Source of the DNA: Odiellus spinosus
Lineage: Eukaryota; Arthropoda; Arachnida; Opiliones; Phalangiidae
NCBI GenBank assembly: GCA_963920705.1
Contig: OY987230.1
Span: forward strand, 4,092,001 to 4,156,000
DNA length: 64,000 nucleotides
Direction of reading: 5' to 3'
A program made the position numbers and the translations under genes. The notes beneath the pieces were generated by a model, which was not told where the DNA came from, searched no databases, and was given only the letters and a program-made list of their open reading frames with translations. Within the stretch, counting starts at the first letter, position 1. The number at the start of each line of letters is the position of its first letter. This document shows, piece by piece, positions 19,965 to 64,000 of this stretch.

Positions 19965-20444
19965 CAAAAATGCCAAGTCTCCCAACGAAATGCTTCCAGC
20001 GTAAAAAGTTGAGAGATATAATGTAAAGCCAAGTCAGTTACTTTACTTCTTATGATGCACCCATTCAACAACATTGTCATAAATTGCTTCCTAATTAGTT
20101 AATTACCTACATCTACTGGCTTTATTTCTATAATAGATATAGTCACTTGGCAATCGCGAGGCAACATAATAATATAAATTTATTAGCGGTCTGATAAGGT
20201 ATTACCTCCCAGCAGCGCTTTATTTGTTGCCTCGCGTTTGCCAAGTGACTATATTTATTATAGAAATAAAGTGTCTTATATTAATACAGTCAGTAAATGT
20301 AGGTAAGTAACTAATTAGGAAACAATTGATGACAATGTTGATGAATTGGTGCATCATAAGAAGTAAAATAACTGACTTGGCTCTACATTATATATCACAC
20401 CTTTTTACGCTTTAAGCATTTCGGTGCGAGACTTGGCATTTTTG
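19965..20444. mobile_element. 480 bp palindromic MITE with TA target duplication
   Basis: Arms of about 205 bp (19965-20170 and 20232-20444) are inverted complements. Left begins CAAAAATGCCAAGTCTCC and right ends with GAGACTTGGCATTTTTG. TA flanks both sides (19963-64 and 20445-46). Arm landmarks: AAGTCAGTTACTTTACTTCT / AGAAGTAAAATAACTGACTT. No coding capacity. Tc1/mariner-type mobilisation is suggested by the TA. Confidence 0.88.
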
Positions 20445-20502
20445 TACTTTCGAATCCATTCCAGGAGCGCTTATCCGATTCGACACTATTACTACGCCCC
20501 GA

Positions 20503-33710: not shown

Positions 33711-33949
33711 TCTCTTCCTCCGTTTTTTTCTTTTGCATATAGACAACCATTAACATAAAATAATTGTTATAAAACAATTAATATAATCCAACACATATTT
33801 TTTTTTCCCGGATGTATAACAATCGAACAAACCAAAACACTAACAAGCAACTAATAGAAAACCATTAATATAAAACAGTTATTATAAAACAATTATTATA
33901 AACCAATTCGAGTTCAAGTTCAACTGTCCCCATAGCACACGGGTGGAAC

Positions 33950-36700: not shown

Positions 36701-37600
36701 TGGACCAGACGCTTGAAGTACCCGTATTCCATGACGCTTATTCTTGTCTCCTTTGGGCTTGCCGGCGCTTCTACAACATATGGCAAAGTGGTTACGTTTC
36801 TGGCAATTTGAACAAACTTTCCCCTTAGCGGGGCAAACCGTCCCCTTATGAGGCCATTCCTTCCCGCAGTCGAAACACTTTTTATCTTCTGCCTTCGATG
36901 CGCGAGCGTGATCTGTTCGACTTTGACCCCTCGTGGGCCGCCCCTGCCGAACCGCCTCGACTCTAGCCAGCGCCGCTTCCTGACCGACCGTTTTTTCCAT
37001 AACGGACGCCTGACGCTCAGTTGCCTCAAACAGCCGTCCTTGCTCCAGAACCGCTGTCAGAGTTAAATCCGGATCCCGCAACGCGAACTTGCGAAGCCGA
37101 CTGGACTTGACCCCGTATATTAACTGCGATTTTATTTCTCTGTCGACGCTGTGAAATTAACAGAACTTCGATAACTTCCTCAAGCGCGTATGAAACTCGT
37201 CAAGCGTTTCAGCATCCAACTGTGTGGATTGGCGAAACAAGTATATCTCATACTCCCGATTCCGTTGTGGCGCAAAATAAGCCGTTAAAGCGGCAGCAGC
37301 ACTCAAGTACGTAACTCCCACGTCACTTAAAGTAGAAAAAATGTCAAATACCTCCTCCCCCGCGTAGTGAAGGAGCATCGCCCTTTTACGATTGTCCACC
37401 GTAACGTCCATTGCCTGAAGGTAAATCTCAAAACGCGAAAGCCATTTATGCCAATGGAGTGAAACCGATGCTGAGTCACTGTGAGGGTCAAACGCCGCAA
37501 AACCCGGAAAATTCGCCGCTGCCATTCCGACTAAGAAACCGATACCGACAACTTCGACTCCCCGAAATAAAAAACCCGATACCGACACATTTATCTCCGT
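36700..37600 (-). pseudogene. Gag region of the Gypsy element (approximate bounds)
   Basis: Capsid-like start with PHSDSASVSLHWHKWLSRFE (position near 37480) and nucleocapsid with two zinc knuckles near 36.8 kb (CFDCGKEWPHKGTVC and CSNCQKRNHFAICC). Confidence 0.85.
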
Positions 37601-37608
37601 CGCCAAAA

Positions 37609-37754
37609 TGTAGTGTTTACTCACTATCGCGGCTATCTAATACAACGGTCAAAGGTTATATATATTCGCGGAACTCCGGGGTCACTCTACCTACACGTTA
37701 CATTGTTCTCTTTTATTACAACTAGTATTCGCCGCCTAGCGGTAGGATCTTACA
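37609..37754 (-). repeat. 5' LTR of the Gypsy element
   Basis: 146 bp; differs from the other LTR mainly by a 6 bp length difference in its first half. Confidence 0.95.
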
Positions 37755-39600: not shown

Positions 39601-40135
39601 ACGGAGGATGTCAAACTTCAATAAACATGGAGGATGCTAAACTTCAATAAACATGGAGGATGGTGGAGGCTATGCAAATGAAAAATTTTGTCGTGCAAAG
39701 AGAAAAAGTTTGTCGTGCAAAAAGAAGACGTTTGTCATGCAAAATGAAAAAGTTTGTCATGGTAAATGAAAGTTTGTCATGGTAAATGAAAGTTTGTCAT
39801 GGTAAATGAAAGTTTGTCATGGTAAATGAAAGTTTGTCATGGTAAATGAAAGTTTGTCATGGTAAATGAAAGTTTGTCATGGTAAATGAAAGTTTGTCAT
39901 GGTAAATGAAAGTTTGTCATGGTAAATGAAAGTTTGTCATGGTAAATGAAAGTTTGTCATGGTAAATGAAAGTTTGTCATGGTAAATGAAAGTTTGTCAT
40001 GGTAAATGAAAGTTTGTCATGGTAAATGAAAGTTTGTCATGCAGAATGAAGAAGTTTACCTTACAAAATACAAAGGTTTGTCATAGAAAATGAAAAGTTT
40101 GATGGAAAATGAAAATGTTTGTCGTGGAAAATGAA
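39600..40135 (+). repeat. Minisatellite, 20 bp unit AGTTTGTCATGGTAAATGAA
   Basis: About fourteen identical copies at 39763-40035 with degraded units on both sides (GTCGTGCAAAGAGAAAAAG), preceded by three copies of CTTCAATAAACATGGAGGAT. The homogeneous core between decayed edges points to recent expansion. Confidence 0.97.
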
Positions 40136-40346
40136 AAGGTGTGACCAGGAAACTGCTTCCATTTTATATATATGTGCAAATATATACAACTTTTTGAGGC
40201 GTTGTTTATTTATACCTAGCTTAATATATACATTATACGTCTAAGGCACTTCTGAATTAATATTGATAAAACGAAATTATCTGAAATTTATGAATGAAGC
40301 AGAGATGCTAAGAGTAGTGGCGTACTTCTTCAAAAAGCAAACACAA

Positions 40347-40780
40347 ATTATACAAAAACTTTTTTCTTCGCGCTTCATAAAAGTGCATATGTAGGCAAGA
40401 AATTTAAACCCGCGAAGGGACAGAAATTAATAATTCAAACCCGTGAAGGGACAGAAATTGAGAATTCAAACCCGTGAAATTCATAATGTAAAAAATGACG
40501 TATAAATTCCGCTTATCGAAACTTTAAATTGTGTAGAAGTCATTCTATAGTAGAATCCACCCTTGGAAAGGGTAACTTTTTAGTGGTGGCGTAAAAAGTT
40601 AACCTTTCAAAGGGTAGATATAGAATGTTTTTTACGGAATTTGTAGTTTCGATAAGCCTAATTTATACATTATTAATTTCACGGGTTTGAATTATTAATT
40701 TCTGTCCCTTTACGGGTTTACATTTCTTCCCAATATATGCACTTTTTTGAAGTGCGAAGCAAAACAAGTCTTTTTATAAT
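40347..40780. mobile_element. Palindromic MITE family A, complete copy
   Basis: Ends ATTATACAAAAACTTTTTTC / GTCTTTTTATAAT are joined to CTTCGCGCTTCATAAAAGTGCAT and its inverted partner. Arms continue with CCCGTGAAGGGACAGAAATT / CTGTCCCTTTACGGG and meet at a short core with GTAGAATCCACCCTTGG. The phrase CAAACCCGTGAAGGGACAGA is duplicated in the left arm. No clear target duplication. Confidence 0.85.
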
Positions 40781-40789
40781 ATACATTTA

Positions 40790-42336
40790 TGGGTAATTTA
40801 CACATTTTGCAAAACGAATGGGCGCAACCCGCCTCCCGGGCTATGGGAATCAATATTAGACAATTACGGAGCGTTGCGAGATTTAACCGAATGTGAATGT
40901 CACAGAGTTAGTATTAGTAAAAATTCAACTCACGTAAAAAGAAGATTCGAGTCGTTGAACTAATTCGCTCGTGGATCGTTTATCATCCTTGATAAACCTC
41001 GATGTTATCGAAACTTCACATTTTCCGAAAGTAGACATTTTTGAAGGGTTAAAGTAGGTCTAAATATTTAAAAGGCCGGAATGCAGTAAAACTTCCCCTA
41101 TAATTTTTCAGCTTTTCATCAGTTAAACACTGGAAAAACAAGTCTGAAAATGATCTCGAATAATATTTAGTACGGCGCAAAGTCCAACTTTAAATTCGCT
41201 TACGCTGAATAGGTTACTTCTGATTAATATATAATAACTATCCAAAATGAGTAATATTCAAAAATTGCGGAATAATGCAAATACGCGGTTTGTGCACATG
41301 GGGTTTGAAGATATCGGAGAAGTTTCATTTCATTTCGTATCTAATTTTGCGAAAGATTTCCTTATTTTAAACCTATTTATGGGAGATGTTTTTTATTATT
41401 AAATTTGGGCCTTAAAAAATGTGCGATTTAGATATTCCAGAAATAATTTTTAGCCCTTAGAGTAAGCGTGAGTAATTTAGTAAAGCGCGACCCCTCCTCA
41501 TAAACTCAAAACCGAGAAAGCTTCGCACAAGCGAATATAATTATGTTTCTCTTCTTGAACTCACGAGGTTTGGACGCGATGCCTTAACGGGAGTCGTTAA
41601 TTAGACCCGGAGACTACAATTATATCAAATTAACATCGACGAAGTATTAAACTTATACAAAAAAATAGCATTCCTCATTCGTCAAAATGACTCGATCTGC
41701 GCGACATTGGTAATTCCGAAGCTCGTCGCTGCTGGCCATAAAACTCTAATCACACCGCTATTTGGTCCCTAATCATAAAGGGAGTCTTTATCGTTCGAAT
41801 TTTTAAATTGAAGATACGAGTGAATTTAAATTATTTAAACGCACTTTTATTAACGTTTAAGCAAAGGTTAGTAAAGAGATTCTGACGTCAATCATAAAAG
41901 AACGTGACCGATAGGAATTTTCGCTTAAAGTTCCACACGCAAACCTTTAAAGTTTATTGTAAATCGAAAGATGCCAGTCAAATTCAATACAAGCGCAACC
42001 TACTTCTTGTTTTCCAGTAGCGCTTTATTTAAAAATCATTTCAACTAGTTATATTTTAAAAGAAATAGCTGGAAGAAAGAAAGTATATGATTATACCACA
42101 GATCTTAATAATTTATAATCATAATAAAAATCTACATTGATTACATTATTTCTATACTTTTTAAACTATTTAGTACATATTGAAAGCTTGATACAATTTG
42201 CTCTACTTGATGGCTCACTTCCCGATAGTTATTCGACACTTCGTTTTAACTTTTAAAATTCGATTTGACCCATTAACTATTTTTGGGTAAGATTAACTAC
42301 TCGCGAGTATCCTCCCCGATACTCTCGGGCGACGAG
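40790..42336. other. Intergenic stretch, no gene recognised
   Basis: AT-rich with no tandem or inverted repeats of note. Confidence 0.3.
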
Positions 42337-42665
42337 GCTCGAGATAAAGGACGGGTGACGAGAACCGAGATAAAGGGCGGGCGACGAGGATCGAGAATAA
42401 GGGCGGGCGACGAGGATCGAGAAAAAGGGCGGGCGACGAGGATCGAGAAAAAGGGCGGGCGACGAGGATCGAGAAAAAGGGCGGGCGACGAGGATTGAGA
42501 TAAAGGGCGGGCGACGAGGATCGAGATAAAGGGCGGGCGACGAGGATCGAGATAAAGGGCGGGCGACGAGGATCGAGATAAAGGGCGGGCGACGAGGATC
42601 GAGATAAAGGGCGGGCGACGAGGATCGAGAAAAAGGGCGGGCGACGAGGATCGAAATAAAGGGAA
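42337..42665 (+). repeat. GC-rich minisatellite, 26 bp unit
   Basis: About twelve units of GATAAAGGGCGGGCGACGAG plus GATCGA with A/T variation (GAGAAAAAGGGC, GAGATAAAGGGC). It is purine-rich with GGG runs and lies in an AT-rich neighbourhood. Both strands show long open frames only because the repeat lacks stops. Confidence 0.97.
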
Positions 42666-49123: not shown

Positions 49124-49259
49124 CTACAGCTAATAATATGGGTTTTGAGTGGGGAAGAATTTATTCAAGTGGATGAGAAGGGAAACTTTTTCTTTGGGAA
49201 ATCCATCTATTCTTTGCATTAGAAAAACTTACGTTAGGTTAAATAAGGATTGTTTAAGT

Positions 49260-49420
49260 TAGGTTGATTGGGTTTGGGTTGGTTAAGTTAGGTTAGGGTT
49301 GGGTTAGGTTTGGGTTAGTTTACGTTGGGTTAGGTTTGGGTTGGGTTGTTTGAGTTAGTTTAGGTTGGATTATGTTAGGTTTACGTTGGATTATGTTAGG
49401 TTTACGTAATTTTTAGCTTT
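49260..49420 (+). repeat. Degenerate TTAGG-like tract
   Basis: GGTTAGGGTTGGGTTAGGTT and similar 5-7 bp words. A similar tract lies at 45040-45150. Confidence 0.8.
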
Positions 49421-49440: not shown

Positions 49441-49950
49441 TAAACTAAGACTTATTTTGTTTAAAGAGAAACTTGAAGCGAAAAATCGAACAGCTTTTGA
49501 ATTTATTTTCGGAATCACCATGTCAAAATACGTGTTTGAGAATTGGTTCATAATTTTTAGACACGTTATAGGTGTTTAAATTAATTTCTAAAGTTTGGTA
49601 AAATTCGAATAAATAAATATAAATTTGGAGCAATCATATTATTTCAGCCTTCGACGGAGCTTGTAATGTATTAGCATTAAAATCATGGTCCGGCGTTTGA
49701 CGCATAAGGCATTAAACGCCAGCCTATTATTTTAATGTTAGGACATTACAAGCGCTATATTGAAAGCTGATAATATGATTGGTCCAAATTTATATTTCAT
49801 ATTATTCAAATTTTACCAAACTTAAGAAATAAATTTTAACACCAAAAACGGCTCTATAATTGTTTGAAAATTCTTGAACACGTTTTTTGGCCCAGCAATT
49901 CCGAAAATAATTTTAAAAGTTGTTACATATTAGCTCCATGTTTCCCTTTA
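49441..49950. mobile_element. About 510 bp palindromic MITE
   Basis: Arms of about 230 bp: AAGTTTGGTAAAATTCGAAT, ATATAAATTTGGAGCAATCA and GCTTGTAATGT on the left are mirrored by ACATTACAAGC, TGATTGGTCCAAATTTATAT and AAATTTTACCAAACTTAAG on the right, about a centre near 49705. Arms are about 80 percent alike, so the element is old. No target duplication identified. Confidence 0.8.
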
Positions 49951-51689
49951 AATCTTAATAATTACTCAAAAAAATATAAATGAAATAAGTCCGTTTATTT
50001 TTCAATTACATATTATTTCAAAAAAATAACATTCGTCGCATAAACGTTTTGATGGGAATATAATAGAGCAGTTTTTTAGATCAAAATATTTAAATAACTT
50101 ACCGCCCAATTTGGCTAATCGGTCGATTGGCCAGGAACATAAAATTTGGCCAAAAGAAGGTAAAACAATAGCAGAAAAGATAACCGTTTAGATCATTTGG
50201 CCCTACGAAGCTCTATCTAATTCGATCAAATAACTTTCGATTCAAAGTCACCTAATCGATTTGTAATGCTGGGTTTGCGCCACTTTGCGTAAAGGCATTC
50301 GTAAGGAATCAGCGCGGCGAGTGGGCTGGGTGGGAGAAATTGCGCGTGAATTGATTTTACAGTCTCCGCCTATCTAAACCGAATATGGTCAAAGAGCAAG
50401 CTCTTTCCGAAAAGCCAAGGGGGGGGGGGGGGGGAGCCTGTGCACAATTTTTTTCCCCGTAAACGAAATAGCACTGATGCTACCGAGTGGCTGAGATACT
50501 CTTGTTATTAGCTCTAGTTCCTTTAATGTAGAATTAGCTTAGATAAATTACCATTATTATTTAAAACAGTATATAATTAAGAAACTTTTTATTTCGTATT
50601 GTAGGCCTACTTAAATTTTAATAATTTTAGTAAAATGTATTTTAATTTAAAATTCCATGATTCTTAAAGATTTTGTCCAATGATCGAACTTTTAAAAAAA
50701 TGCAATGGCACTTTCCCGACGAATTAGCTCAATTTCCAAAACCTCATACCTTTAATATATCTTAACTTTACCCCAACTTTTCTATTTCATTTTTCCGATT
50801 TCCGGGTATTTCTTGACTTTTCCACTTAGCCAAATTTATAAATTTTCTAATTTACCCCGATTTTTGCCCTATTTTTCTAATCAAGTAACTTTACTCATAT
50901 TTTTGGTAAATTTTTTTAAATTTCCTGGCCAAATTTTTCTTGACATTTTGCTAACCATTTAGCCTTATTCCTTGACTTTCACAAATCCTTATCTTTGAAA
51001 ACCCAATTTTCAAACATTCTAACTTTTCGAGGATTTTGATGACCCGCCCCTGGCAACCGTGAGTTTTAGTGTTAAGAAACTATAAGAAAGTATTTGGCAA
51101 TTAAAAATATTTATACACTCTCATCCAACTATTAAGCTAGCCTGTTAATTCAGAAATCATAGTGTTTTTTCATAAACTTTGATACCCGCTAACTAAACCC
51201 CGCTTGAATAAACGGGTTTCAAGATTTAAAACTAGAATAATTGAAGTATTTAGTAATTATCTATATACTCTATATATACACATATTACTATATATATGTA
51301 AATTAAAATACTAATAGTGAGTCGGTCACGGACTTTTCACGAACTCCAAATGGAAATTGAGTAGCATTTTCGAAATAATCGATAAAACTCCACTCAAATA
51401 TATCATAGAACAAAATTACCGTAAAAATTAATACATTCATTACAGTAAAAATTCAAATTTTATAATCGCCATTTTCAATATTTAAAAATAAAAATATCCG
51501 TAATACTACGTCATAAAGTATATTCATGTGGCTATTGAAGAGTATACAGTTGATTCTCGCGTGTTCTGCCACGTGATAAGGTCGCTTTTGCGCCGTCTTT
51601 TTAGTCCTACCTTTCGTATGAAAATTATTGTTAATTAGGTTCCAGGAAAAATTACTTCTAACTCGGGTCAAATCCCTGAGGGGACACAA
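49951..51689. other. Intergenic stretch with G16 tract and pyrimidine-rich prose-like repeat
   Basis: A run of 16 G at 50419-50434. From 50690 to 51010 units such as CCCGATTTTTGCCC, TTTCTTGACTTTTCC and CTAACTTTTCGAGG recur loosely. No gene supported. Confidence 0.4.
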
Positions 51690-52500
51690 ATCTAGGAAGC
51701 CAAGCTTTTATATTATATGGGTTGTGGTGTTCGGCTACTTTTGGTTTTTACAATATTATCTAGTTTTTGTAACATTTCATTTAATTTAGTTTTACAAATT
51801 AATTTTCTTCCTATATTAATTGAAATTTATCTTATTTGGAGTTTGAAGCGAAATATTCAACACGCCATAAGGCTAATATGCCATTACAACAAAAAGATAG
51901 TATATTGTATATAGGCTCCGAGGAGTTATGTTAGTCAAGCGAGAAGCCGTGAAGAGTGGTGGAGACTGGAGATCCCACCATCTCAACATCTAGAGGTAGT
52001 TAATTCATAAGGCATTCGGTAACTCCACCACAAAGAGGAGTGGATGATGGACAGTTTGTGAGGTGGGAGTTAATTTCGGATCACTGTCGGCCAGGTGGTT
52101 TGAAGTTATCGTGTGCCGATTCCGCATGGAAGTTTGGTGGTTAATTTGGATTAAAATTGGCCGATTGGTTTCAAATTAATTAGTCACTGCTGGATGGACG
52201 TGTGGGATTGGCAGATTCCGCATTGAAGTTTGGTGGTGGTCTAGTTAATTTGGTATCAAATTGACCGATTGGTTTCAAATTAATTAGTCATTGCTGAATG
52301 GACAAGTGGATTTCGGCAGAAAGGTGGAAGGGAACTGATCAATCTTGGCCAAGTTGGTTACGTTTACTACACACCTTAAGAGGTTTCTTTTTTAACGTAT
52401 GGTTGCTTCCATCCCACACAAGATCCTCGTTCGGGGGTTTGGGTAAGGCAATTACTTTTTTAAAATCACGCGGTAGGTCACGTGATATCAGTAAATAAAA
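51690..52500 (+). mobile_element. Diverged relative of the hairpin-ended family
   Basis: AACACGCCATAAGGCTAATA, GGAGATCCCACCATCTCAAC and GGTCACGTGATATC correspond to phrases in 48190-48760, but the middle differs. It has its own internal tandem of about 110 bp (GGTTTCAAATTAATTAGTCA twice, 52165-52190 and 52270-52295). No terminal hairpin. Confidence 0.45.
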
Positions 52501-52519
52501 AATGAGAGTTGACTATCAC

Positions 52520-53086
52520 GGGGTGGCAGTTTTGATCATGGGTTCTATGGGGTGGTAATGTTAATTTTCCTTCGACGGACATTTCCCCGGATATTCTCCC
52601 GGCAATTGAAAGGCGGTATAGCCGCAGACCTATGCCAGCGACACCCCGCAAAGGGGTGTGATAAGACGCCGCTGTTTCGGAAGCTCACAGCGGCAGATAA
52701 GAAATCGTGAATATCGGGGTGGTAGTTTTTGTTTTGGGTGCTATGGAGTGGCAATGCTAATTTGGCTTCGACGGGTAAGAGCGCCGATTTAACGTCGGGT
52801 AGAGAAGAGCGTTCACCCCGTGGAGAGCTACCCTTGGTTCTACGTATAGAGGGTGTGATAAGACGCCGTAGTTTCGGAAGCTTACAACGGCAGATAAGAA
52901 ATCTGGAATATCACTAGTTCCAAATGCTTATCAGCGTTCGAGTTCGGTGTTTATCTTTTGAAATAGAGCTAATAGGGAAAGAAGGCTGCTATGATTAAAC
53001 GAATTATTTATCCTTAAAGTCTTAAAACAGAGGAGAGGGCGAAAGGGTGGCATCCCGCGACACGTTGGAAATTAACCGCGCGCCTT
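52520..53086 (+). repeat. Copies of a dispersed about 450 bp unit outside the proven palindrome
   Basis: GGGTGCTATGG.GTGGCAATG, TTCGACGGGTAAGAGCGCC, GGGTGTGATAAGACGCCG, TTTCGGAAGCT and AAATAGAGCTAATAGG occur in order. Related units lie at 53290-53620, 54100-54680 and 55080-55450. The GGGTAAGAGCGCCGATTTAA part looks tRNA-like (D and anticodon arms), only weakly. Confidence 0.7.
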
Positions 53087-53289
53087 ATAAATTAGAATCG
53101 GTAGATTTCGACGGGAAAACGGAAACATTTCAATCTGAAAATCTTAATAGGCTTAACCGTTAATAAGTTTTAGGCTTATACAACAGGAGATGGGTGATGT
53201 TTTCAAGAGGTAATGTAAACAAGCGGTTAACCCGAAAGAAAACATTTGGTAGTATAAAAAGAAATATACCATTTAGTTTTTGCTAATGT

Positions 53290-53620
53290 TAATTTTAATT
53301 CGATGGGTAAGAGCGCTGATTTGACACCGGCTATAGGAATATGTTTTCACCGCAGAGAGCGGTTCGACGGGTAGTGGCTCCGATAAGACATCGGAATTTT
53401 AAGAGTTCACGCAGGTTGATAAGGAATCGATCATACCGCTGGTTCCAAATGCCAGACAAGACCGAGTTCTGCGTTTATCTTTTGAAATAGAGCTAATAGG
53501 AGGAAGGGCTGTTATCTCTATTATTCACACTTAAAACAGAAGAAAAGGTGAGGGTGTCATCCCGCGCATCCCGCGACGCGTCGAAAATTAACCGCGCGTG
53601 TTATAAATTTGAATCGTGCG
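53290..53620 (+). repeat. Dispersed about 450 bp unit, copy in left arm (mirror 63467-63797)
   Basis: Contains GATGGGTAAGAGCGCTGATT, GGTTCCAAATGCCAGACAAG, AAATAGAGCTAATAGG and CATCCCGCGACGCGTCG, the same order as at 52740-53080. Confidence 0.7.
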
Positions 53621-53959
53621 CCCCAGCGACTTCCACCCATTGTTACCAGCCCTCCAATTAAACATATAATTAAGGTAAGATGGGGTGGGTGTTATAGGGA
53701 GACAATGTTTATTTGACTTTGACGGGCTACAGTAGGTTTAACGGCTAATATTCTTTTAAAATTCACCAACGTGGGTGTTAGAGGGTGGTGATGTTAAACT
53801 CTCTCGATATTTCACACGTAAACTTGAAATTGTTGCAATTCCTCAGGCTAAAACAGAACTAAAATTCAAATCGATTTTTGTAAAGGAGCTAAACTTTTTA
53901 ATAATATTAATCCGTCAAGCATAATGACACTTACTCTTTTTATTAACTAATCAACCAAA

Positions 53960-54081
53960 AGCCTTGTAAAAACTAACTTTGAACAATTAAGAGGCATAAA
54001 AGTCGCTTGCGACTTAGCCTCCCCGAAAATGTACTAATTTTTTAGAGTAGACAATAAAGATATATTATTATTATTATTATT
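53960..54081 (+). mobile_element. 3' tail of a LINE or SINE, (ATT)n end (mirror 63006-63127)
   Basis: A hairpin-forming AAGTCGCTTGCGACTTAGCC is followed by GACAATAAAGATAT and (TATTAT)n. Such AATAAAGAT-(ATT)n ends are typical of arthropod non-LTR elements. No coding part. Confidence 0.55.
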
Positions 54082-54099
54082 TGAATTAACCAACTTGTG

Positions 54100-55500
54100 A
54101 AAAACTTCCGTTTACCGCAGACGCATGCCAAAGGCACCCAGCCAAGTGGTGTGATTTGGGGTAGTAGTTTCGGGAACCCAGAAAGAAAAATAGGGAGTAG
54201 GGAAAACCGCTCGTTCCGTCGGGGAAATGAAAATTTTACACACCGGAAATCCGTGTGGACACAACTGGTATATATTAAGAGGAATATTTTAAGTTGTGAA
54301 ACTGTATATTTTAATTATTTGGATGAGAGGACTCGAGAAATCAGTTCCTCTATCGAGATTTCTCGGTGGTGACGATGGAATCAAAGTCATAAGGGTTTCC
54401 GAAATTAACGGGTCATACGCTTGAACCACTAGAAAATGGCAACTTCCATAAACAGAACACCCCGTGTGACTTGTTTAAAGCAATTAATTTGCCTTCGACG
54501 GACATTTTCTCGAATATTTTCCCCGCAATTGGAGTTCCAAATGCTTATCAGGGTTCGATTTCAGTGTTTATCTATTGAAATAGAGCTAATAGGAAAAAAA
54601 AAAAAAAACTGCTATCTCTGTTAAACGATTATTTATTCTTAAAGTCTTAACACATGAGCAGGCGAAGGGGTGCCATCACGCTGAAAGAGAGCCCCGTATT
54701 TACAAATAATCGCGAGATCCATAATCGAAAATAAAAACTTACACCAACAATGTTTGTTAATGAGACAAGTTTTTAGCCGTAACGTTTACCATCATCTATA
54801 ATCGAATACAAAATGGCTCTCTCGCGTTAAATCTATACAATGGGAACGACTAGTTCCCGTTTGATGTTTTAGATAAGATCAAGGTTATTTCAATGTATCA
54901 CTGAAAATCCAAATGACCGATATTTGGTAGCATCTTGTATTTCGAAAATACAGGTTTCGGATCAAGGTATTTTTTCCATCAACGATGAAACGAACGTTTG
55001 TAAAAATGTTTGATGCCACGAAAGTTTAAAAACAATAAACGCCATTTCGTGTTCAATAATATATTAGTGAGGGGGTGCAGGTTTTTGGGTGTGGGTGCTA
55101 TGGGATGCTAATGTAAGAGTGGCGAAAAGGCTACAGAGTAACGTTTTCACCTCAGAGATCTTCCCTCGGTTCCACGTATAGTGGGTGTAATAAGACGTCG
55201 CAGTTTCGGAAGCTCACAATGGTAGATAAGAAATCGAGAACGAGGATGGCGGTTTTGGCATTGGGTGCTATGGGGTGCTAATGTTAATTTCACTCCGACG
55301 GGTAAGAGCGATGATTTGACATCGGCTAGAGAAGAGCGTTCTCTCAGGGGGGTGCTATCCTTGGTTCAACGTATAGTGGGTGTGATAAGAATCCGAAATT
55401 TAAAGAGTACGCGACGACTGATAGGGAATCGAGAATATCGTCTTTAAAAGTATGCTTATGATAAGAAATTCCATAGTGAAATAATCGGATTTCACCGCAT
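54100..55500 (+). repeat. Further dispersed-unit copies and unidentified sequence in left arm (mirror 61587-62987)
   Basis: 54100-54180 and 54480-54690 hold parts of the unit (GGTGTGATTTGGGGTAGTAG, AAATAGAGCTAATAGG). 55080-55450 holds two more starts (GGGTGCTATGGGGTGCTAATG, CACTCCGACGGGTAAGAGCG). 54690-55070 shows nothing recognisable. The 91-codon frame at 54097-54372 lies in this degenerate repeat and is not called. Confidence 0.6.
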
Positions 55501-55625
55501 CCCCACCCCAGTTCTATAGTACAAAATATATCGAGATAGACGAATAAGTAAATAGAAACATATTTTATTATTATACACGATATGCGACGATGTGTTACAT
55601 CAAATTAGACGTAGTATTCGTATGT

Positions 55626-56381
55626 TCAGATGCTGGGATAATATAATGGATATTCAACCCCATGCCCTGAACATACAAATACTACGTCTAATTTGATGTA
55701 ATACACTGCCGTACCCGAGTGTATACACTCTACATTTTCGCAGTACAAGGCGCGAGCATTCTCATCGCATGTGCTGACATAGTCTATAATTGCCATCCCA
55801 TCCCCTCCGCACCATATACATATAAATTTGTCGCCGACCAGCGTACAGCGTCCCATATTATACAATGCGTCAAAGTCCCATCCACTAGAAAAAAAAAAAA
55901 AAAAAATAAAAAAAAAAATAAAAAAATAAAAAAATAAAAAATCTAAATCTATAGTTATTCTAAAATAATTTCAAAACATACGGTATAATGTCGGCATCCA
56001 CCTCCGCAATATCCTCGGTACTACCCCCACTCTCATAACCGGCGTCATCACCATCACCATCATCATTGAATAGTTCCTCGTCGCCGATGTCGTCGTGATT
56101 TGGTAGGTTCCACCCTACGGCATCGATAACTACACCCTCGCCGACCGCTGGCTCTCCAACCGGCGCAACATCTACCTCGATATCGAACCTGTACGAACAT
56201 ACAAATAAATTAACAAAACATACAAATTAAGACGAATTAAACCGAAATCTACTTACAACTCGTTCAGTGGGGGCTGTAATATAGCATCCACATCCCACAG
56301 AACCTCGTTGGGAATTTGACCAGCGTTGTCTTGGTCGACGTGTGGGCATGGGGAAAATTGGGATCGTGGACATACATTCAT
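55626..56381 (-). CDS. Unknown three-exon gene, left-arm copy
   Basis: Mirror of 60706-61461. On the minus strand: exon A 56257-56381, exon B 55982-56188, exon C 55626-55884, with the same splice signals and the same 196-residue product. I do not recognise the family; see the right-arm copy for the description. The two copies face away from the axis, each reading outward, separated by about 4.3 kb that holds four copies of the internal repeat S. Confidence 0.7.
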
Positions 56382-56397
56382 TTTAAATGTAAGACTG

Positions 56398-57117
56398 TCG
56401 AATGGTTTTTACACACATTTCCGACGTTATTTATACCCCAAATCTGTGTATGTAGATCATGACAACATGATTGTCATTATTTACATGGATGAACGGAATT
56501 TGACCGACTGACCTCACAACTATATAAATGGCATAGTTTAATCTGCATTTCTTAACACTATATAGCTTTCATTTAGAAATCTTCTTAGCCATAGCTGGTA
56601 CAGAATTAACTTATAAAGATAAACAGAGAAATTCGGCAGTTGATAAGCGTCTCTTGATTTATTATTTATCCACAAACTTAATTTATAGACTTTAAACAAG
56701 CGACATAAGGTGTTCATTTCGTAGTATTTACAGCTCTCAGGCTGTTCAAATACCACATTTTTAAATAGTAAAACGACTTTTCGAGTCCCATCATCCAAAT
56801 CACATTTCTACATCCTATATTTAAAATTTTACTATTGTACTTAGTTTCACCTATTTTACTTAAATCAGGTCATTTAAATTTTCTAAAATCAAAGATAGTG
56901 TAAACTAGAAATATAATATTGAGATTTTTCTTTTTGTGTTCCTAGAAATACTTATTTATAAATATGTAAACCCGAGATATAATATTGAGAATTTCCTTTT
57001 TCTGTTTCTAGAAATACTTATTTTAAAATACGTGATTTAGAGATATAATATCGAGAATTTTCTTGTTACGTTTCTGGAAATACGTTTAAATTTAAAATTC
57101 AATTTTTTATATATAAA
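56398..57117 (+). repeat. Internal repeat S, copy 1 (four copies in the palindrome)
   Basis: About 720 bp. Inverted and shortened copy at 57998-58419, direct copy at 58420-59089, inverted copy at 59970-60689. Copies 1 and 2 differ at a few percent of sites, so the smaller inverted repeat predates the large one. Confidence 0.88.
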
Positions 57118-57724
57118 ATTCCACTTATTGTTATTGGTTATGTTCCGCCATCGGATGTAGTTAGATCCGATGGCGGAACCTATCACGTGATCGAAAATTT
57201 TAATTTTAAAGTTCGAAGATATTTTAAGCATGGGGAGTCGGAAAACCGTAAGATTTAGGGTTTCCACTGTTTACGTCACACCCTATGAAGAATTCCGTCA
57301 ATCCTGTATGTTTGTAATGCGTATAAAATGTTTATACGAACCAATGCTAAATCCAAATCGGAAGCTGAAACTAGAAAAACTGAACAAGTGCGTTGGAATT
57401 CTCAAGTAAACTGAAAAAACTCATGACGTCTCAGGGGAGAACCCGACAAGAACATATTTTCACGTTGGAATTAACGGTGTTAAAGTATTAAGGGGGTAAT
57501 TTTAAATTTGACACCGTAGTTCCAGGAGCTTACAACGGTAGAGTGGAAATCGGGAATACAGGTCGTTCCAAATGTTGGATAAAGCTTATCAACTCTGAAC
57601 TACGGATATCAGGTTTTACACAAAGTCGTAAAACCTGGTAAACCTGGAAATCTTCGGGGGCATAAATTAAAAACTAAATATTCAGGGAAACTTTAAAAAC
57701 ATTTCGGTGAAAGCCAGGGAATTA

Positions 57725-57758
<34 letters not shown>

Positions 57759-58275
57759 GATATTTAAATTACACAGATAAACCATAAATTGAAAATAAAT
57801 TCTCTTATTGGAAGTTTACGGTACTCTACGGAAAAACTTCGGGGGTATATGGCAAACATCATCCTGATTTAGAATGTAAATAATTGAAGTGTCCACGTAA
57901 AAAACGTTTTCTGATAGTTACAATTGTCAAGTTTAAGTAGAAGGGGTGACAATTTAAGCATAAAAGATGTCAATTATAGTAAAATAGGTGAAGCTAGACA
58001 CAATAAGTGGAATTTTATATATAAAAAATTGAATTTTAAATTTAAACGTATTTCCAGAAACGTAACAAGAAAATTCTCGATATTATATCTCTAAATCACG
58101 TATTTTAAAATAAGTATTTCTAGAAACAGAAAAAGAAAAATCTCAATATTATATTTCTAGTTTACACTATCTTTGATTTTAGAAAATTTAAATGACCTGA
58201 TTTAAGTAAAATAGGTGAAACTAAGTACAATAATAAAATTTTAAATATAGGATGTAGAAATGTGATTCGGATGAT

Positions 58276-58533
58276 TTGACTCGAAAAGTCGTTTTAATAT
58301 ATAATAATGTGGTATTTGAACTGCCTGAGAGTTGTAATTACAACGAAATGAACACCTTATGTCGTTTGTGTAAATCCTATAAATTAAGTTTGTGGATAAA
58401 TAATAAATCGAGAGACGCTTCGAATGGTTTTTACACACATTTCCGACGTTATTTATACCCCAAATCTGTGTATGTAGATCATGACAACATGATTGTCATT
58501 ATTTACTTGGATGAACGGAATTTGACCGACTGA
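58276..58533 (+). CDS. Chimeric open frame across the palindrome junction, doubtful
   Basis: Its first 49 residues come from the inverted S copy and the rest (NGFYTHFRRYLYPKSVYVDH...) from the direct S copy. The frame is continuous through the join at 58419/58420. Formed by rearrangement; no evidence of expression. Confidence 0.2.
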   Translation: MTRKVVLIYNNVVFELPESCNYNEMNTLCRLCKSYKLSLWINNKSRDASNGFYTHFRRYLYPKSVYVDHDNMIVIIYLDERNLTD

Positions 58534-58667
58534 CCTCACAACTATATAAATGGCATAGTTTAATCTGCATTTCTTAACACTATATAGCTTTCATTTAGAA
58601 CTCCTCTTAGCCATAGCTGGTACAGAATTAACTTATAAAGATAAACAGAGAAATTCGGCAGTTGATA
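58420..58667. other. Central spacer of the palindrome
   Basis: 248 bp without a partner across the axis. It is not unique: it equals 56398-56647 in the left arm with a few changes (MDERNLTD frame, then the AAGCGTCTC junction). The axis therefore joins two copies of the internal repeat at different offsets. Confidence 0.9.
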
Positions 58668-59328
58668 AGCGTCTCTTGATTTATTATTTATCCACAAACT
58701 TAATTTATAGACTTTAAACAAGCGACATAAGGTGTACATTTCGTTGTAATTACAACTCTCAGGCAGTTCAAATACCACATTATTATATATTAAAACGACT
58801 TTTCGAGTCAAATCATCCGAATCACATTTCTACATCCTATATTTAAAATTTTATTATTGTACTTAGTTTCACCTATTTTACTTAAATCAGGTCATTTAAA
58901 TTTTCTAAAATCAAAGATAGTGTAAACTAGAAATATAATATTGAGATTTTTCTTTTTCTGTTTCTAGAAATACTTATTTTAAAATACGTGATTTAGAGAT
59001 ATAATATCGAGAATTTTCTTGTTACGTTTCTGGAAATACGTTTAAATTTAAAATTCAATTTTTTATATATAAAATTCCACTTATTGTGTCTAGCTTCACC
59101 TATTTTACTATAATTGACATCTTTTATGCTTAAATTGTCACCCCTTCTACTTAAACTTGACAATTGTAACTATCAGAAAACGTTTTTTACGTGGACACTT
59201 CAATTATTTACATTCTAAATCAGGATGATGTTTGCCATATACCCCCGAAGTTTTTCCGTAGAGTACCGTAAACTTCCAATAAGAGAATTTATTTTCAATT
59301 TATGGTTTATCTGTGTAATTTAAATATC

Positions 59329-59362
<34 letters not shown>

Positions 59363-59907
59363 TAATTCCCTGGCTTTCACCGAAATGTTTTTAAAGTTTC
59401 CCTGAATATTTAGTTTTTAATTTATGCCCCCGAAGATTTCCAGGTTTACCAGGTTTTACGACTTTGTGTAAAACCTGATATCCGTAGTTCAGAGTTGATA
59501 AGCTTTATCCAACATTTGGAACGACCTGTATTCCCGATTTCCACTCTACCGTTGTAAGCTCCTGGAACTACGGTGTCAAATTTAAAATTACCCCCTTAAT
59601 ACTTTAACACCGTTAATTCCAACGTGAAAATATGTTCTTGTCGGGTTCTCCCCTGAGACGTCATGAGTTTTTTCAGTTTACTTGAGAATTCCAACGCACT
59701 TGTTCAGTTTTTCTAGTTTCAGCTTCCGATTTGGATTTAGCATTGGTTCGTATAAACATTTTATACGCATTACAAACATACAGGATTGACGGAATTCTTC
59801 ATAGGGTGTGACGTAAACAGTGGAAACCCTAAATCTTACGGTTTTCCGACTCCCCATGCTTAAAATATCTTCGAACTTTAAAATTAAAATTTTCGATCAC
59901 GTGATAG

Positions 59908-59945
59908 GTTCCGCCATCGGATCTAACTACATCCGATGGCGGAAC
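59908..59945. repeat. Perfect 15 bp hairpin GTTCCGCCATCGGAT (mirror 57142-57179)
   Basis: GTTCCGCCATCGGAT and ATCCGATGGCGGAAC with an 8 bp loop, GC-rich in an AT-rich setting, next to a CACGTGATAG. It lies at the inner end of repeat S. Confidence 0.9.
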
Positions 59946-60279
59946 ATAACCAATAACAATAAGTGGAATTTTATATATAAAAAATTGAATTTTAAATTTA
60001 AACGTATTTCCAGAAACGTAACAAGAAAATTCTCGATATTATATCTCTAAATCACGTATTTTAAAATAAGTATTTCTAGAAACAGAAAAAGGAAATTCTC
60101 AATATTATATCTCGGGTTTACATATTTATAAATAAGTATTTCTAGGAACACAAAAAGAAAAATCTCAATATTATATTTCTAGTTTACACTATCTTTGATT
60201 TTAGAAAATTTAAATGACCTGATTTAAGTAAAATAGGTGAAACTAAGTACAATAGTAAAATTTTAAATATAGGATGTAG

Positions 60280-60549
60280 AAATGTGATTTGGATGATGGG
60301 ACTCGAAAAGTCGTTTTACTATTTAAAAATGTGGTATTTGAACAGCCTGAGAGCTGTAAATACTACGAAATGAACACCTTATGTCGCTTGTTTAAAGTCT
60401 ATAAATTAAGTTTGTGGATAAATAATAAATCAAGAGACGCTTATCAACTGCCGAATTTCTCTGTTTATCTTTATAAGTTAATTCTGTACCAGCTATGGCT
60501 AAGAAGATTTCTAAATGAAAGCTATATAGTGTTAAGAAATGCAGATTAA
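60280..60549 (+). CDS. Open frame in repeat S (mirror 56538-56807), doubtful gene
   Basis: About 89 codons: DDGTRKVVLLFKNVVFEQPE ... NTLCRLFKVYKLSLW. The related frames at 58276 (plus) and 58811 (minus) keep the reading frame despite many amino-acid changes (DLTRKVVLIYNNVVFELPES). No family recognised and no good start codon (the first residue is TTG or an upstream AAA codon). It may be an exon of the neighbouring unknown gene, a transposon protein remnant, or chance. Confidence 0.25.
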   Translation, partial: KCDLDDGTRKVVLLFKNVVFEQPESCKYYEMNTLCRLFKVYKLSLWINNKSRDAYQLPNFSVYLYKLILYQLWLRRFLNESYIVLRNAD

Positions 60550-60705
60550 ACTATGCCATTTATATAGTTGTGAGGTCAGTCGGTCAAATTCCGTTCATCC
60601 ATGTAAATAATGACAATCATGTTGTCATGATCTACATACACAGATTTGGGGTATAAATAACGTCGGAAATGTGTGTAAAAACCATTCGACAGTCTTACAT
60701 TTAAA

Positions 60706-61461
60706 ATGAATGTATGTCCACGATCCCAATTTTCCCCATGCCCACACGTCGACCAAGACAACGCTGGTCAAATTCCCAACGAGGTTCTGTGGGATGTGGA
60801 TGCTATATTACAGCCCCCACTGAACGAGTTGTAAGTAGATTTCGGTTTAATTCGTCTTAATTTGTATGTTTTGTTAATTTATTTGTATGTTCGTACAGGT
60901 TCGATATCGAGGTAGATGTTGCGCCGGTTGGAGAGCCAGCGGTCGGCGAGGGTGTAGTTATCGATGCCGTAGGGTGGAACCTACCAAATCACGACGACAT
61001 CGGCGACGAGGAACTATTCAATGATGATGGTGATGGTGATGACGCCGGTTATGAGAGTGGGGGTAGTACCGAGGATATTGCGGAGGTGGATGCCGACATT
61101 ATACCGTATGTTTTGAAATTATTTTAGAATAACTATAGATTTAGATTTTTTATTTTTTTATTTTTTTATTTTTTTTTTTATTTTTTTTTTTTTTTTTTCT
61201 AGTGGATGGGACTTTGACGCATTGTATAATATGGGACGCTGTACGCTGGTCGGCGACAAATTTATATGTATATGGTGCGGAGGGGATGGGATGGCAATTA
61301 TAGACTATGTCAGCACATGCGATGAGAATGCTCGCGCCTTGTACTGCGAAAATGTAGAGTGTATACACTCGGGTACGGCAGTGTATTACATCAAATTAGA
61401 CGTAGTATTTGTATGTTCAGGGCATGGGGTTGAATATCCATTATATTATCCCAGCATCTGA
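60706..61461 (+). CDS. Unknown three-exon gene, right-arm copy (acidic, Cys-rich)
   Basis: Exon A 60706-60830, GTAAGT donor; exon B 60899-61105, entered by TTCGTACAG and left by GTATGT; exon C 61203-61461, entered after a long T tract and CTAG. Both junctions are phase 2, and the frame stays open through all 197 codons to TGA. ATG at 60706 is the first start in a frame opening at 60679. The product starts MNVCPRSQFSPCPHVDQDNA. Exon B is strongly acidic (HDDIGDEELFNDDGDGDD). Exon C is Cys-rich (CTLVGDKFICIWCGGDG, then CDENA..YC..VEC and VCSGHG). No signal peptide or membrane helix, so it is probably intracellular. Family unknown to me. AATAAA at 61518. Coding sequence near the stop lies in a 35 bp hairpin stem. 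An upstream exon cannot be excluded. Confidence 0.72.
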
Positions 61462-61492
61462 ACATACGAATACTACGTCTAATTTGATGTAA
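61386..61492. repeat. Long hairpin across the stop codon of the unknown gene (mirror 55595-55701)
   Basis: Stems 61386-61420 and 61458-61492 are inverted complements over 35 bp with one mismatch (TTACATCAAATTAGACGTAG / CTACGTCTAATTTGATGTAA); the loop is 37 bp. The left stem codes for the last third of exon C, and the TGA opens the right stem. Confidence 0.92.
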
Positions 61493-61517
61493 CACATCGT
61501 CGCATATCGTGTATAAT

Positions 61518-61523
61518 AATAAA
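61518..61523 (+). terminator. Polyadenylation signal of the unknown gene (mirror 55564-55569)
   Basis: AATAAA lies 57 bp after the stop codon. Confidence 0.6.
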
Positions 61524-64000
61524 ATATGTTTCTATTTACTTATTCGTCTATCTCGATATATTTTGTACTATAGAACTGGGGTGGGGATGCGGTGAAATCC
61601 GATTATTTCACTATGGAATTTCTTATCATAAGCATACTTTTAAAGACGATATTCTCGATTCCCTATCAGTCGTCGCGTACTCTTTAAATTTCGGATTCTT
61701 ATCACACCCACTATACGTTGAACCAAGGATAGCACCCCCCTGAGAGAACGCTCTTCTCTAGCCGATGTCAAATCATCGCTCTTACCCGTCGGAGTGAAAT
61801 TAACATTAGCACCCCATAGCACCCAATGCCAAAACCGCCATCCTCGTTCTCGATTTCTTATCTACCATTGTGAGCTTCCGAAACTGCGACGTCTTATTAC
61901 ACCCACTATACGTGGAACCGAGGGAAGATCTCTGAGGTGAAAACGTTACTCTGTAGCCTTTTCGCCACTCTTACATTAGCATCCCATAGCACCCACACCC
62001 AAAAACCTGCACCCCCTCACTAATATATTATTGAACACGAAATGGCGTTTATTGTTTTTAAACTTTCGTGGCATCAAACATTTTTACAAACGTTCGTTTC
62101 ATCGTTGATGGAAAAAATACCTTGATCCGAAACCTGTATTTTCGAAATACAAGATGCTACCAAATATCGGTCATTTGGATTTTCAGTGATACATTGAAAT
62201 AACCTTGATCTTATCTAAAACATCAAACGGGAACTAGTCGTTCCCATTGTATAGATTTAACGCGAGAGAGCCATTTTGTATTCGATTATAGATGATGGTA
62301 AACGTTACGGCTAAAAACTTGTCTCATTAACAAACATTGTTGGTGTAAGTTTTTATTTTCGATTATGGATCTCGCGATTATTTGTAAATACGGGGCTCTC
62401 TTTCAGCGTGATGGCACCCCTTCGCCTGCTCATGTGTTAAGACTTTAAGAATAAATAATCGTTTAACAGAGATAGCAGTTTTTTTTTTTTTTTCCTATTA
62501 GCTCTATTTCAATAGATAAACACTGAAATCGAACCCTGATAAGCATTTGGAACTCCAATTGCGGGGAAAATATTCGAGAAAATGTCCGTCGAAGGCAAAT
62601 TAATTGCTTTAAACAAGTCACACGGGGTGTTCTGTTTATGGAAGTTGCCATTTTCTAGTGGTTCAAGCGTATGACCCGTTAATTTCGGAAACCCTTATGA
62701 CTTTGATTCCATCGTCACCACCGAGAAATCTCGATAGAGGAACTGATTTCTCGAGTCCTCTCATCCAAATAATTAAAATATACAGTTTCACAACTTAAAA
62801 TATTCCTCTTAATATATACCAGTTGTGTCCACACGGATTTCCGGTGTGTAAAATTTTCATTTCCCCGACGGAACGAGCGGTTTTCCCTACTCCCTATTTT
62901 TCTTTCTGGGTTCCCGAAACTACTACCCCAAATCACACCACTTGGCTGGGTGCCTTTGGCATGCGTCTGCGGTAAACGGAAGTTTTTCACAAGTTGGTTA
63001 ATTCAAATAATAATAATAATAATATATCTTTATTGTCTACTCTAAAAAATTAGTACATTTTCGGGGAGGCTAAGTCGCAAGCGACTTTTATGCCTCTTAA
63101 TTGTTCAAAGTTAGTTTTTACAAGGCTTTTGGTTGATTAGTTAATAAAAAGAGTAAGTGTCATTATGCTTGACGGATTAATATTATTAAAAAGTTTAGCT
63201 CCTTTACAAAAATCGATTTGAATTTTAGTTCTGTTTTAGCCTGAGGAATTGCAACAATTTCAAGTTTACGTGTGAAATATCGAGAGAGTTTAACATCACC
63301 ACCCTCTAACACCCACGTTGGTGAATTTTAAAAGAATATTAGCCGTTAAACCTACTGTAGCCCGTCAAAGTCAAATAAACATTGTCTCCCTATAACACCC
63401 ACCCCATCTTACCTTAATTATATGTTTAATTGGAGGGCTGGTAACAATGGGTGGAAGTCGCTGGGGCGCACGATTCAAATTTATAACACGCGCGGTTAAT
63501 TTTCGACGCGTCGCGGGATGCGCGGGATGACACCCTCACCTTTTCTTCTGTTTTAAGTGTGAATAATAGAGATAACAGCCCTTCCTCCTATTAGCTCTAT
63601 TTCAAAAGATAAACGCAGAACTCGGTCTTGTCTGGCATTTGGAACCAGCGGTATGATCGATTCCTTATCAACCTGCGTGAACTCTTAAAATTCCGATGTC
63701 TTATCGGAGCCACTACCCGTCGAACCGCTCTCTGCGGTGAAAACATATTCCTATAGCCGGTGTCAAATCAGCGCTCTTACCCATCGAATTAAAATTAACA
63801 TTAGCAAAAACTAAATGGTATATTTCTTTTTATACTACCAAATGTTTTCTTTCGGGTTAACCGCTTGTTTACATTACCTCTTGAAAACATCACCCATCTC
63901 CTGTTGTATAAGCCTAAAACTTATTAACGGTTAAGCCTATTAAGATTTTCAGATTGAAATGTTTCCGTTTTCCCGTCGAAATCTACCGATTCTAATTTAT

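What the first reader, a model, noticed from the sequence alone, without database searches (positions are those of the whole stretch)
53087..64000. A near-perfect palindrome of at least 10.9 kb fills the right end of the window
Arms of at least 5333 bp around a 248 bp spacer pair base for base (x with 117087-x). Even fast-mutating tracts (T29 at 57727-57755, its A29 mirror, mixed A/T tracts) have equal lengths. Real palindromes of this kind occur on sex chromosomes and at gene-amplification sites, where gene conversion keeps arms identical. The same picture also arises when a long read misses its hairpin adapter and is assembled as a fold-back. About six differences next to the spacer, and the asymmetric join, argue for some biology, but equal homopolymers make an artefact a serious option.
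Basis: partly seen in the sequence, partly recalled or inferred. Interest (0 to 1): 0.85.

Follow-up and report, generated by a model that had tools for sequence, protein, structure and literature searches.

The report
Jumping palindrome: a mirror-image Polinton transposon
The 12-kb mirror-image stretch is not an assembly error but a mobile DNA element, a gene-poor relative of the virus-like Polinton transposons, whose two halves are copies of each other, and at least nine such copies sit in this genome.

Summary
The palindrome is real and larger than reported: a 12,108-bp mobile element, window 52490 to 64597 (597 bp beyond the window). Its 5,931-bp arms differ at six sites, all within 70 bp of a 246-bp spacer. 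At least nine palindromic copies lie on seven contigs. All eight with both ends readable carry a perfect 6-bp target-site duplication, each a different sequence, around 5'-AGTAAATAAA termini. That rules out a fold-back read artefact and a locus-bound palindrome.
Polintons/Mavericks have 6-bp duplications and AG/AGT ends. The outer 740 bp are 94-95% identical to the ends of ~14.8-kb elements; the one I read has an rve integrase. So this is a non-autonomous, almost wholly palindromic Polinton derivative.
Lineage-specific changes, often even A/T-tract lengths, are shared by both arms of a copy (77 cases against 7). Four centre types occur, three with joints at 1-2 bp of homology or a T run. I infer snap-back origin on a displaced Polinton strand, arm equalisation before insertion, and centre remodelling; mobility and family are shown. 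Eight open-access searches listed no palindromic Polinton.

The parts
52484..52489 (.). left 6-bp target-site duplication GATATC (its partner follows the right end, at 64598-64603, beyond the window)
52490..58420 (+). left arm of the palindromic element; terminus 5'-AGTAAATAAAAAATGAGAG
52490..53229 (+). outer 740 bp of the left arm, 94-95% identical to the terminal inverted repeats of ~14.8-kb Polinton-type elements
56398..57131 (-). internal repeat E, copy A; its 89-aa frame weakly resembles the end of the first open frame of the 14.8-kb element
57132..57999 (+). 868-bp segment X between the two E copies of the left arm; forms the spacer in copies C4b and C4c
58000..58420 (+). internal repeat E, copy C, truncated at the joint
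58420..58421 (.). asymmetric centre joint (1 bp of shared sequence); identical joint in copy C1
58421..58666 (.). 246-bp spacer: the body of repeat E copy B, present on one side only
58421..59087 (-). internal repeat E, copy B; its inner 316 bp resemble copy A, the rest is the mirror of copy C
58667..64000 (-). right arm (continues to 64597, 597 bp beyond the window)
63858..64000 (-). part inside the window of the mirrored outer 740 bp (63858-64597)

Best explanation
It is a non-autonomous Polinton/Maverick derivative made almost entirely of two inverted copies of one ~5.9-kb segment that ends in a Polinton terminus. SHOWN: it is mobile (nine dispersed palindromic copies; 6-bp duplications of eight different sequences), its ends match those of ~14.8-kb elements, of which the one read bears an integrase, its arms are near-identical within copies, and its centre exists in four forms. 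INFERRED: integrase and protein-primed DNA polymerase from full Polintons move it in trans, because it keeps their ends. The palindrome arose when a displaced Polinton single strand folded back on itself, with inverted E repeats as the likely pairing sites, and was copied into a mirror image. Arms are equalised before insertion, by heteroduplex repair in a hairpin or cruciform or by arm-to-arm exchange. The exposed centre is repeatedly broken and rejoined, which leaves asymmetric spacers.
For: Dispersed inverted pairs at 98-100% (40 of 73, 40 of 126 and 40 of 244 candidates scored, so counts are lower bounds). 6-bp duplications in 8 of 8 palindromic copies with both ends readable, and in the one 14.8-kb element read. 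Outer 740 bp shared with six inverted pairs 14.7-14.8 kb apart. In the one read: rve integrase E 8.5e-14, plus chromodomain (E 0.005) and A32-ATPase (E 0.017) matches below their cut-offs. 161 matches to polymerase family PF03175 in the same genome (77 of 571 candidates scored), many in frames of about 1,300 aa. Arm-shared versus single-arm substitutions outside repeat E: 77 versus 7 copy-level cases, majority base taken as the reference. Tract lengths often equal within copies and different between lineages. Direct arm-to-arm strings: C6 80 of 80 segments identical, other copies 46-69 of 47-72, C15 50 of 50. Joints. Published analogue: AAV snapback genomes, symmetric or asymmetric with a loop (PMC8235507, passages).
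Against: The arms carry no recognisable Polinton gene: Pfam gave only weak chance-like matches and the protein match to the 14.8-kb element is weak (50% over 26 aa, E 8e-5 for one of 55 frames tried). I found no non-palindromic Polinton carrying the whole arm, so the progenitor is missing. Polymerase-like fragments of the 14.8-kb copy gave no Pfam match. The ends begin AGT but are not the exact (AG)3 or (AGT)2 motifs of vertebrate Mavericks. C4b and C4c share two unequal arm sites, 52668 and 52860, so equalisation is not complete at every transposition. No reads, expression or movement were observed.
Confidence: 0.85

Rival explanations
1. Cut-and-paste palindrome plus gene conversion: the palindrome formed once, moves as an ordinary element, and arms are kept alike by gene conversion or crossover in the chromosome, not by any replicative snap-back intermediate.
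For: Arm exchange must occur: C4b and C4c, at different sites, carry the same two unequal alleles on opposite arms relative to the same centre. All centres could be deletions of one larger palindrome.
Against: Four closely related copies (C17, C3, C4a, C90) share lineage changes on both arms although their flanks differ, so homogenisation preceded insertion. Single-copy, single-arm substitutions (53006 in C90; 54021 and 54507 in C4c) and tract-length differences show drift after insertion.
Confidence: 0.3
2. Assembly or sequencing artefact (missed hairpin adapter, fold-back read, or whole-genome-amplification chimera).
For: Near-perfect arms with equal homopolymers at C6; two of nine copies (C17, C3) have 200-N gaps in or at one arm, so palindromes may trouble this assembly.
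Against: Nine copies, eight with different perfect 6-bp duplications and non-matching flanks; the palindrome ends at termini shared with non-palindromic elements; arms differ in length in six copies: C1, C17, C3, C4a, C90, C4c.
Confidence: 0.01
3. A foldback-type element of another DNA-transposon superfamily (FB, Galileo) that merely resembles Polinton ends.
For: Long, internally repetitive inverted ends and no transposase gene are typical of foldback-like elements (PMC3573991, abstract and passages).
Against: 6-bp rather than 7-bp duplications, AGT ends, and 740-bp ends shared at 94-95% with a 14.8-kb element holding an rve integrase and a weak A32-like ATPase match.
Confidence: 0.04

Closest known systems
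Polintons/Mavericks (autonomous, 15-20 kb)
   Same: 6-bp target duplications, AG/AGT start of the termini, and 740-bp ends shared with an integrase-bearing 14.8-kb element in the same genome
   Different: 8.6-12.3 kb, no recognised Polinton gene, and inverted repeats covering most of the element instead of only its ends
AAV snapback (defective-interfering) genomes
   Same: one end of a linear genome duplicated as a mirror image, symmetric or asymmetric with a loop (PMC8235507, passages)
   Different: those are packaged parvovirus subgenomes; these are dispersed chromosomal insertions of a protein-primed-polymerase lineage
Foldback-like transposons such as Galileo
   Same: non-autonomous copies made largely of long inverted repeats
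   Different: Galileo ends are 18 bp to about 1.26 kb, with 7-bp duplications (PMC3573991, passages); here arms reach 5.9 kb with 6-bp duplications
Fold-back inverted duplications of human chromosomes
   Same: inverted copies around a single-copy spacer, with short homology or inverted repeats at the joint (PMC3907307, abstract and passages)
   Different: one-off chromosomal rearrangements, not mobile elements

Membership tests
Polinton/Maverick (as derivative) | 6-bp target-site duplication | tested here: met
   8 of 8 palindromic copies with both ends readable; the ninth runs into an N gap
Polinton/Maverick (as derivative) | terminal inverted repeats beginning AG or AGT | tested here: met
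   AGTAAATAAA at all 17 readable ends of the nine copies. The published vertebrate motifs are (AG)3 and (AGT)2 (PMC8097293, passage); only the first three bases agree, the exact motif does not
Polinton/Maverick (as derivative) | termini shared with an element encoding an rve integrase | tested here: met
   94-95% over 740 bp; rve E 8.5e-14 in the one 14.8-kb element read, of six such pairs
Polinton/Maverick (as derivative) | protein-primed DNA polymerase B in the element that shares its ends | tested here: inconclusive
   frame fragments look like PolB by eye (recall) but Pfam gave no match; PF03175 is abundant elsewhere in the genome
Polinton/Maverick (as derivative) | capsid, protease and ATPase genes in the element that shares its ends | tested here: inconclusive
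   Pox_A32 match E 0.017, below its cut-off; capsid and protease recognised only by eye, from recall
Autonomous Polinton | 15-20 kb with its own replication and integration genes | tested here: not met
   8.6-12.3 kb; longest stop-to-stop arm frame 121 aa, and seven arm frames without credible Pfam match
Galileo/P superfamily foldback | 7-bp target-site duplication | tested here: not met
   6 bp in 8 of 8 copies tested
Sex-chromosome or amplification palindrome | locus-bound palindrome without transposon ends or target duplication | tested here: not met
   dispersed on seven contigs with target duplications

The most novel reading that the evidence does not exclude
These elements are integrated snap-back subgenomes of a polintovirus-like element: half-genome hairpins that replicate by borrowing a full Polinton's polymerase and ends, are re-equalised in a self-paired stage before insertion, and behave as defective-interfering-like parasites. 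Read-through transcripts would fold into dsRNA; 454 of 720 of their end 21-mers also occur in the 14.8-kb element, so they might silence it too.
Probability: 0.3. Interest if true: 0.78.

Novelty: new variant of a known kind. Interest (0 to 1): 0.56.

Why it matters
How Polintons replicate is known mainly by inference (my own knowledge). A family of natural, mobile, nearly perfect palindromes with Polinton ends looks like a record of strand fold-back in that cycle, and it makes the idea of snap-back or defective-interfering forms in a transposon/virus lineage testable. It is also a practical warning: a perfect palindrome in an assembly can be a true mobile element, and the test is termini, target duplications and dispersed copies, not arm identity.

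Tried and rejected
Rejected: read artefact (dispersed copies and target duplications). Rejected: the differences beside the spacer as sequencing errors; five of the six are bases of internal repeat copy A, and the sister copy C1 with the same joint has only two of the six between its arms. My first working idea, fold-back priming at one chromosomal locus, was dropped.

No use: Rfam and tRNA scans (none); exact-pattern scans of genome contigs and viral contigs (none); PHROGs (nothing meaningful). The adapter scan timed out without output and was not repeated.

Counts not used or corrected: (arm-against-arm BLAST by pieces) is distorted by repeat E cross-matches (36 mismatches for C6, 35 for C1, 22 for C4c) and piece borders (C4a only 410 columns, no row for C4b). 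In one search the apparent arm differences of C4b (25) and C4c (22) lie mostly in repeat E; outside it they are 2 and 4. The indel columns are inflated by gap placement; comparing the strings directly (repeat E and the A-rich tract left out) gives arm length differences in C1, C17, C3, C4a and C90, and adds C4c; C6, C15 and C4b have none in what was compared.

Progenitor search: diverged single-armed fragments on contig C17 (4950200-4953421; 1181199 onward; 1155683 onward). Beside the first of them the frames of the 14.8-kb element matched only the terminal-repeat and repeat-E parts, so they are not shown to be the source; the third was not read.

Literature: ten searches of the open-access library. 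Eight bear on palindromic or foldback Polintons and transposons: 20 of 44 papers listed; 25 of 32; 15 of 15; 2 of 2; 15 of 67; 15 of 24; 12 of 544; 12 of 355. No listed title or abstract start describes a palindromic Polinton; the unlisted ones were not seen. Two sought adenovirus-type palindromic defectives. Beyond listings I saw only passages of PMC8097293, PMC4028283, PMC12368964, PMC2884549, PMC8235507, PMC3573991, PMC6431247 and PMC3907307. Subscription papers and repeat databases could not be searched.
Full report
OBSERVATION. The mirror symmetry is exact. Positions x and 117087-x pair without a mismatch for 5,264 positions from 53087 to 58350, followed by six mismatches up to 58410 and a 246-bp spacer at 58421-58666. 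The window cuts the feature. The window is C6:4092001-4156000 of a 443-Mb, 286-contig genome. With the next stretch of that contig (L009) the arms are 5,931 bp each, 52490-58420 and 58667-64597, and no further mismatch appears. Just beyond 52490 the symmetry collapses: 66 of 90 positions fail to pair.

WHAT IT IS. A search of the genome with 1,301 bp of the arm returned inverted pairs at 98-100% identity elsewhere. Reading those places gave nine palindromic elements: C6 (this window), C1, C3, C15, C17, C90 and three on C4, called C4a, C4b and C4c. All nine left ends begin AGTAAATAAAAAA and the eight readable right ends are its reverse complement. Those eight copies carry a perfect 6-bp duplication: GATATC, TATGTA, GGTTCC, AAAATA, CGCGGA, GACGTC, ATAATG and AGTATA. 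The ninth (C17) runs into a 200-N gap. Lengths of the eight are 8,614 to 12,319 bp; C3 contains another 200-N gap. These are independent insertions of a mobile element, so the palindrome is neither a read artefact nor a locus-bound feature. The searches scored 40 of 73, 40 of 126 and 40 of 244 candidates, so nine is a lower bound.

FAMILY. A 6-bp target duplication together with ends that begin AG or AGT is described for Mavericks (PMC8097293, passages); the exact published vertebrate motifs, (AG)3 and (AGT)2, are not met. The outer 740 bp (52490-53229) match, at 94-95%, the ends of other elements that form six inverted pairs 14.7-14.8 kb apart and one 10.1-kb pair. I read one of the six in two pieces (C8:4766600-4781380, 14,781 bp, duplication TATAAT). 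It has an rve integrase frame of 356 aa (E 8.5e-14) with a weak chromodomain match, and a weak A32-type ATPase match. Its polymerase, protease and capsid genes I recognise only by eye, from recall; Pfam did not confirm them. The genome holds 161 matches to the polymerase family PF03175 (77 of 571 candidates scored), many in open frames of about 1,300 aa, so helper functions are probably at hand. The 10.1-kb element is an ordinary internal-deletion derivative, not a palindrome.

ANATOMY. The longest stop-to-stop frames of the arm are 121 aa (in the outer 740 bp) and 114 aa. Seven arm frames gave no credible Pfam match and five none in PHROGs. The arm contains degenerate copies of parts of the terminal repeat and an internal repeat E: copy A at 56398-57131, copy C at 58000-58420, and copy B at 58421-59087, which includes the spacer. 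The short frame in E resembles, weakly, the end of the first open frame of the 14.8-kb element (50% over 26 aa, E 8e-5), and another arm stretch resembles the middle of that frame. This hints that the arm derives from one end of a Polinton, but I did not find a non-palindromic element carrying the whole arm.

THE SIX DIFFERENCES. They do not look like random errors. At five of the six sites the right side carries the base of repeat copy A; at the sixth (58351) it differs from both A and C. Copy C1 has the same centre joint but only two of the six differences between its arms. The natural reading is exchange among E copies inside the element.

ARMS EVOLVE TOGETHER. Outside repeat E, departures from the majority base occur on both arms of a copy in 77 copy-level cases at 44 sites, and on one arm in 7 cases at 5 sites. 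Cutting the arms into short segments between shared anchors and comparing the strings directly, C6 is identical in 80 of 80, C15 in 50 of 50, C1 in 69 of 72, C17 in 56 of 57, C3 in 46 of 47, C4a in 69 of 71, C4b in 48 of 49, C4c in 46 of 49 and C90 in 69 of 71. The A-rich tract at 55889-55941 is the same in both arms of five of the eight copies where both could be read (53/53 in C6, 47/47 in C1, 33/33 in C3 and C4a, 36/36 in C4b), and unequal in C17 (35/33), C4c (36/37) and C90 (25/33). The T tract is 29/29 in C6 and 28/28 in C1, but 37/35, 35/37 and 35/36 in C17, C3 and C4a. C6 and C1 share a centre joint yet their left arms differ at 15 sites and in tract length, and at those 15 sites each matches its own right arm. 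Arms were therefore equalised after those two lineages split. Single-copy, single-arm changes show that arms drift apart after insertion. C6 and C15, with no difference in what was compared outside the centre, look like young insertions; this is an inference.

CENTRES. Four forms exist: (i) C6 and C1, spacer 246 bp; (ii) C17, C90, C3 and C4a, limits 58343 and 58178, in either orientation; (iii) C4b and C4c, one copy of the 868-bp segment between E copies; (iv) C15, limits 57747 and 55906. Joints show 1 bp shared (i; C6, and the same joint in C1), 2 bp shared (ii; C17 and C90 read) and a T run (iv). C4b and C4c, in different target sites, carry the same two unequal alleles (52668, 52860) on opposite arms relative to the same centre. 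That implies arm-to-arm crossover or centre inversion, and it shows that equalisation is not complete in every cycle.

MECHANISM. Best supported: one end of a Polinton was duplicated as a mirror image by snap-back synthesis; the product kept two good ends and is moved in trans; arms are equalised before insertion by pairing with each other; and the hairpin-prone centre is cut and rejoined. Mobility, family, concerted arms and centre variety are shown. Snap-back, trans-mobilisation and the equalising step are inferred. The nearest described process is AAV snapback genomes, symmetric or asymmetric with a loop (PMC8235507, passages); fold-back inverted duplications with spacers are known in human chromosomes (PMC3907307, abstract and passages).

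NOVELTY. Ten open-access searches, eight of them on this question, listed no palindromic Polinton; several lists were capped, and subscription papers and repeat databases were out of reach, so this is not proof of absence. I rate it a new variant of a known kind. A second, unrelated and larger inverted duplication that spans polymerase genes of another Polinton-type element lies on C4; its ends were not reached, so whether it is mobile is open.

Noticed in passing
L033, L034, L035 (C4:1727062-1752000): A second, unrelated inverted duplication: arms of at least 11 kb, pieces 98.5-100% identical, spacer about 1,030 bp, a PF03175 polymerase in each arm, a weak ATPase-like frame across the spacer and what looks like a copia-type retroelement (by eye) in both arms. 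Ends not reached; mobile palindrome or segmental duplication is open.
   Followed up: partly
L028 (C17:4950200-4953421), L031 (C17:1181199-1184455), and hits at C17:1155683 onward: Older relatives of the arm (main pieces 92-96%), single-armed, at three places on one contig; frames near the first look like insect ionotropic receptors by eye, but Pfam gave no match.
   Followed up: partly
L032 (C8:9526725-9536827): A 10.1-kb internal-deletion derivative of the 14.8-kb Polinton family, lacking about 4.6 kb; the ordinary way to become non-autonomous, in contrast to the palindromic form.
   Followed up: yes
L021 (C17:2955376-2955575) and L022 (C3:7887170-7887369): 200-N gaps at two of the nine palindromes, perhaps a sign that these elements are hard to assemble.
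   Followed up: no
window 54686-55071: A ~386-bp piece of the arm matches many dispersed sequences in the genome at about 81%.
   Followed up: no
window 33923-37636 (- strand): Retrotransposon with reverse transcriptase, RNase H and integrase domains and a gag-type protease match just below its cut-off (frames at 34386-37156 only).
   Followed up: partly
window 19963-20446, 49460-49952, 40437-40719: Imperfect palindromes of 280-500 bp, 75-80% symmetric; they look like small foldback or MITE-type elements.
   Followed up: no
window 49229-49402, 39705-40136, 42326-42663: A degenerate TTAGG-like array (telomere-type repeat of many arthropods, from recall) and two tandem arrays of 20-bp and 26-bp units.
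   Followed up: no
window 58249-58410 against 56398-57029: Differences between E repeat copies are crowded into about 150 bp of an otherwise nearly identical repeat, with no gaps there; cause unknown.
   Followed up: partly
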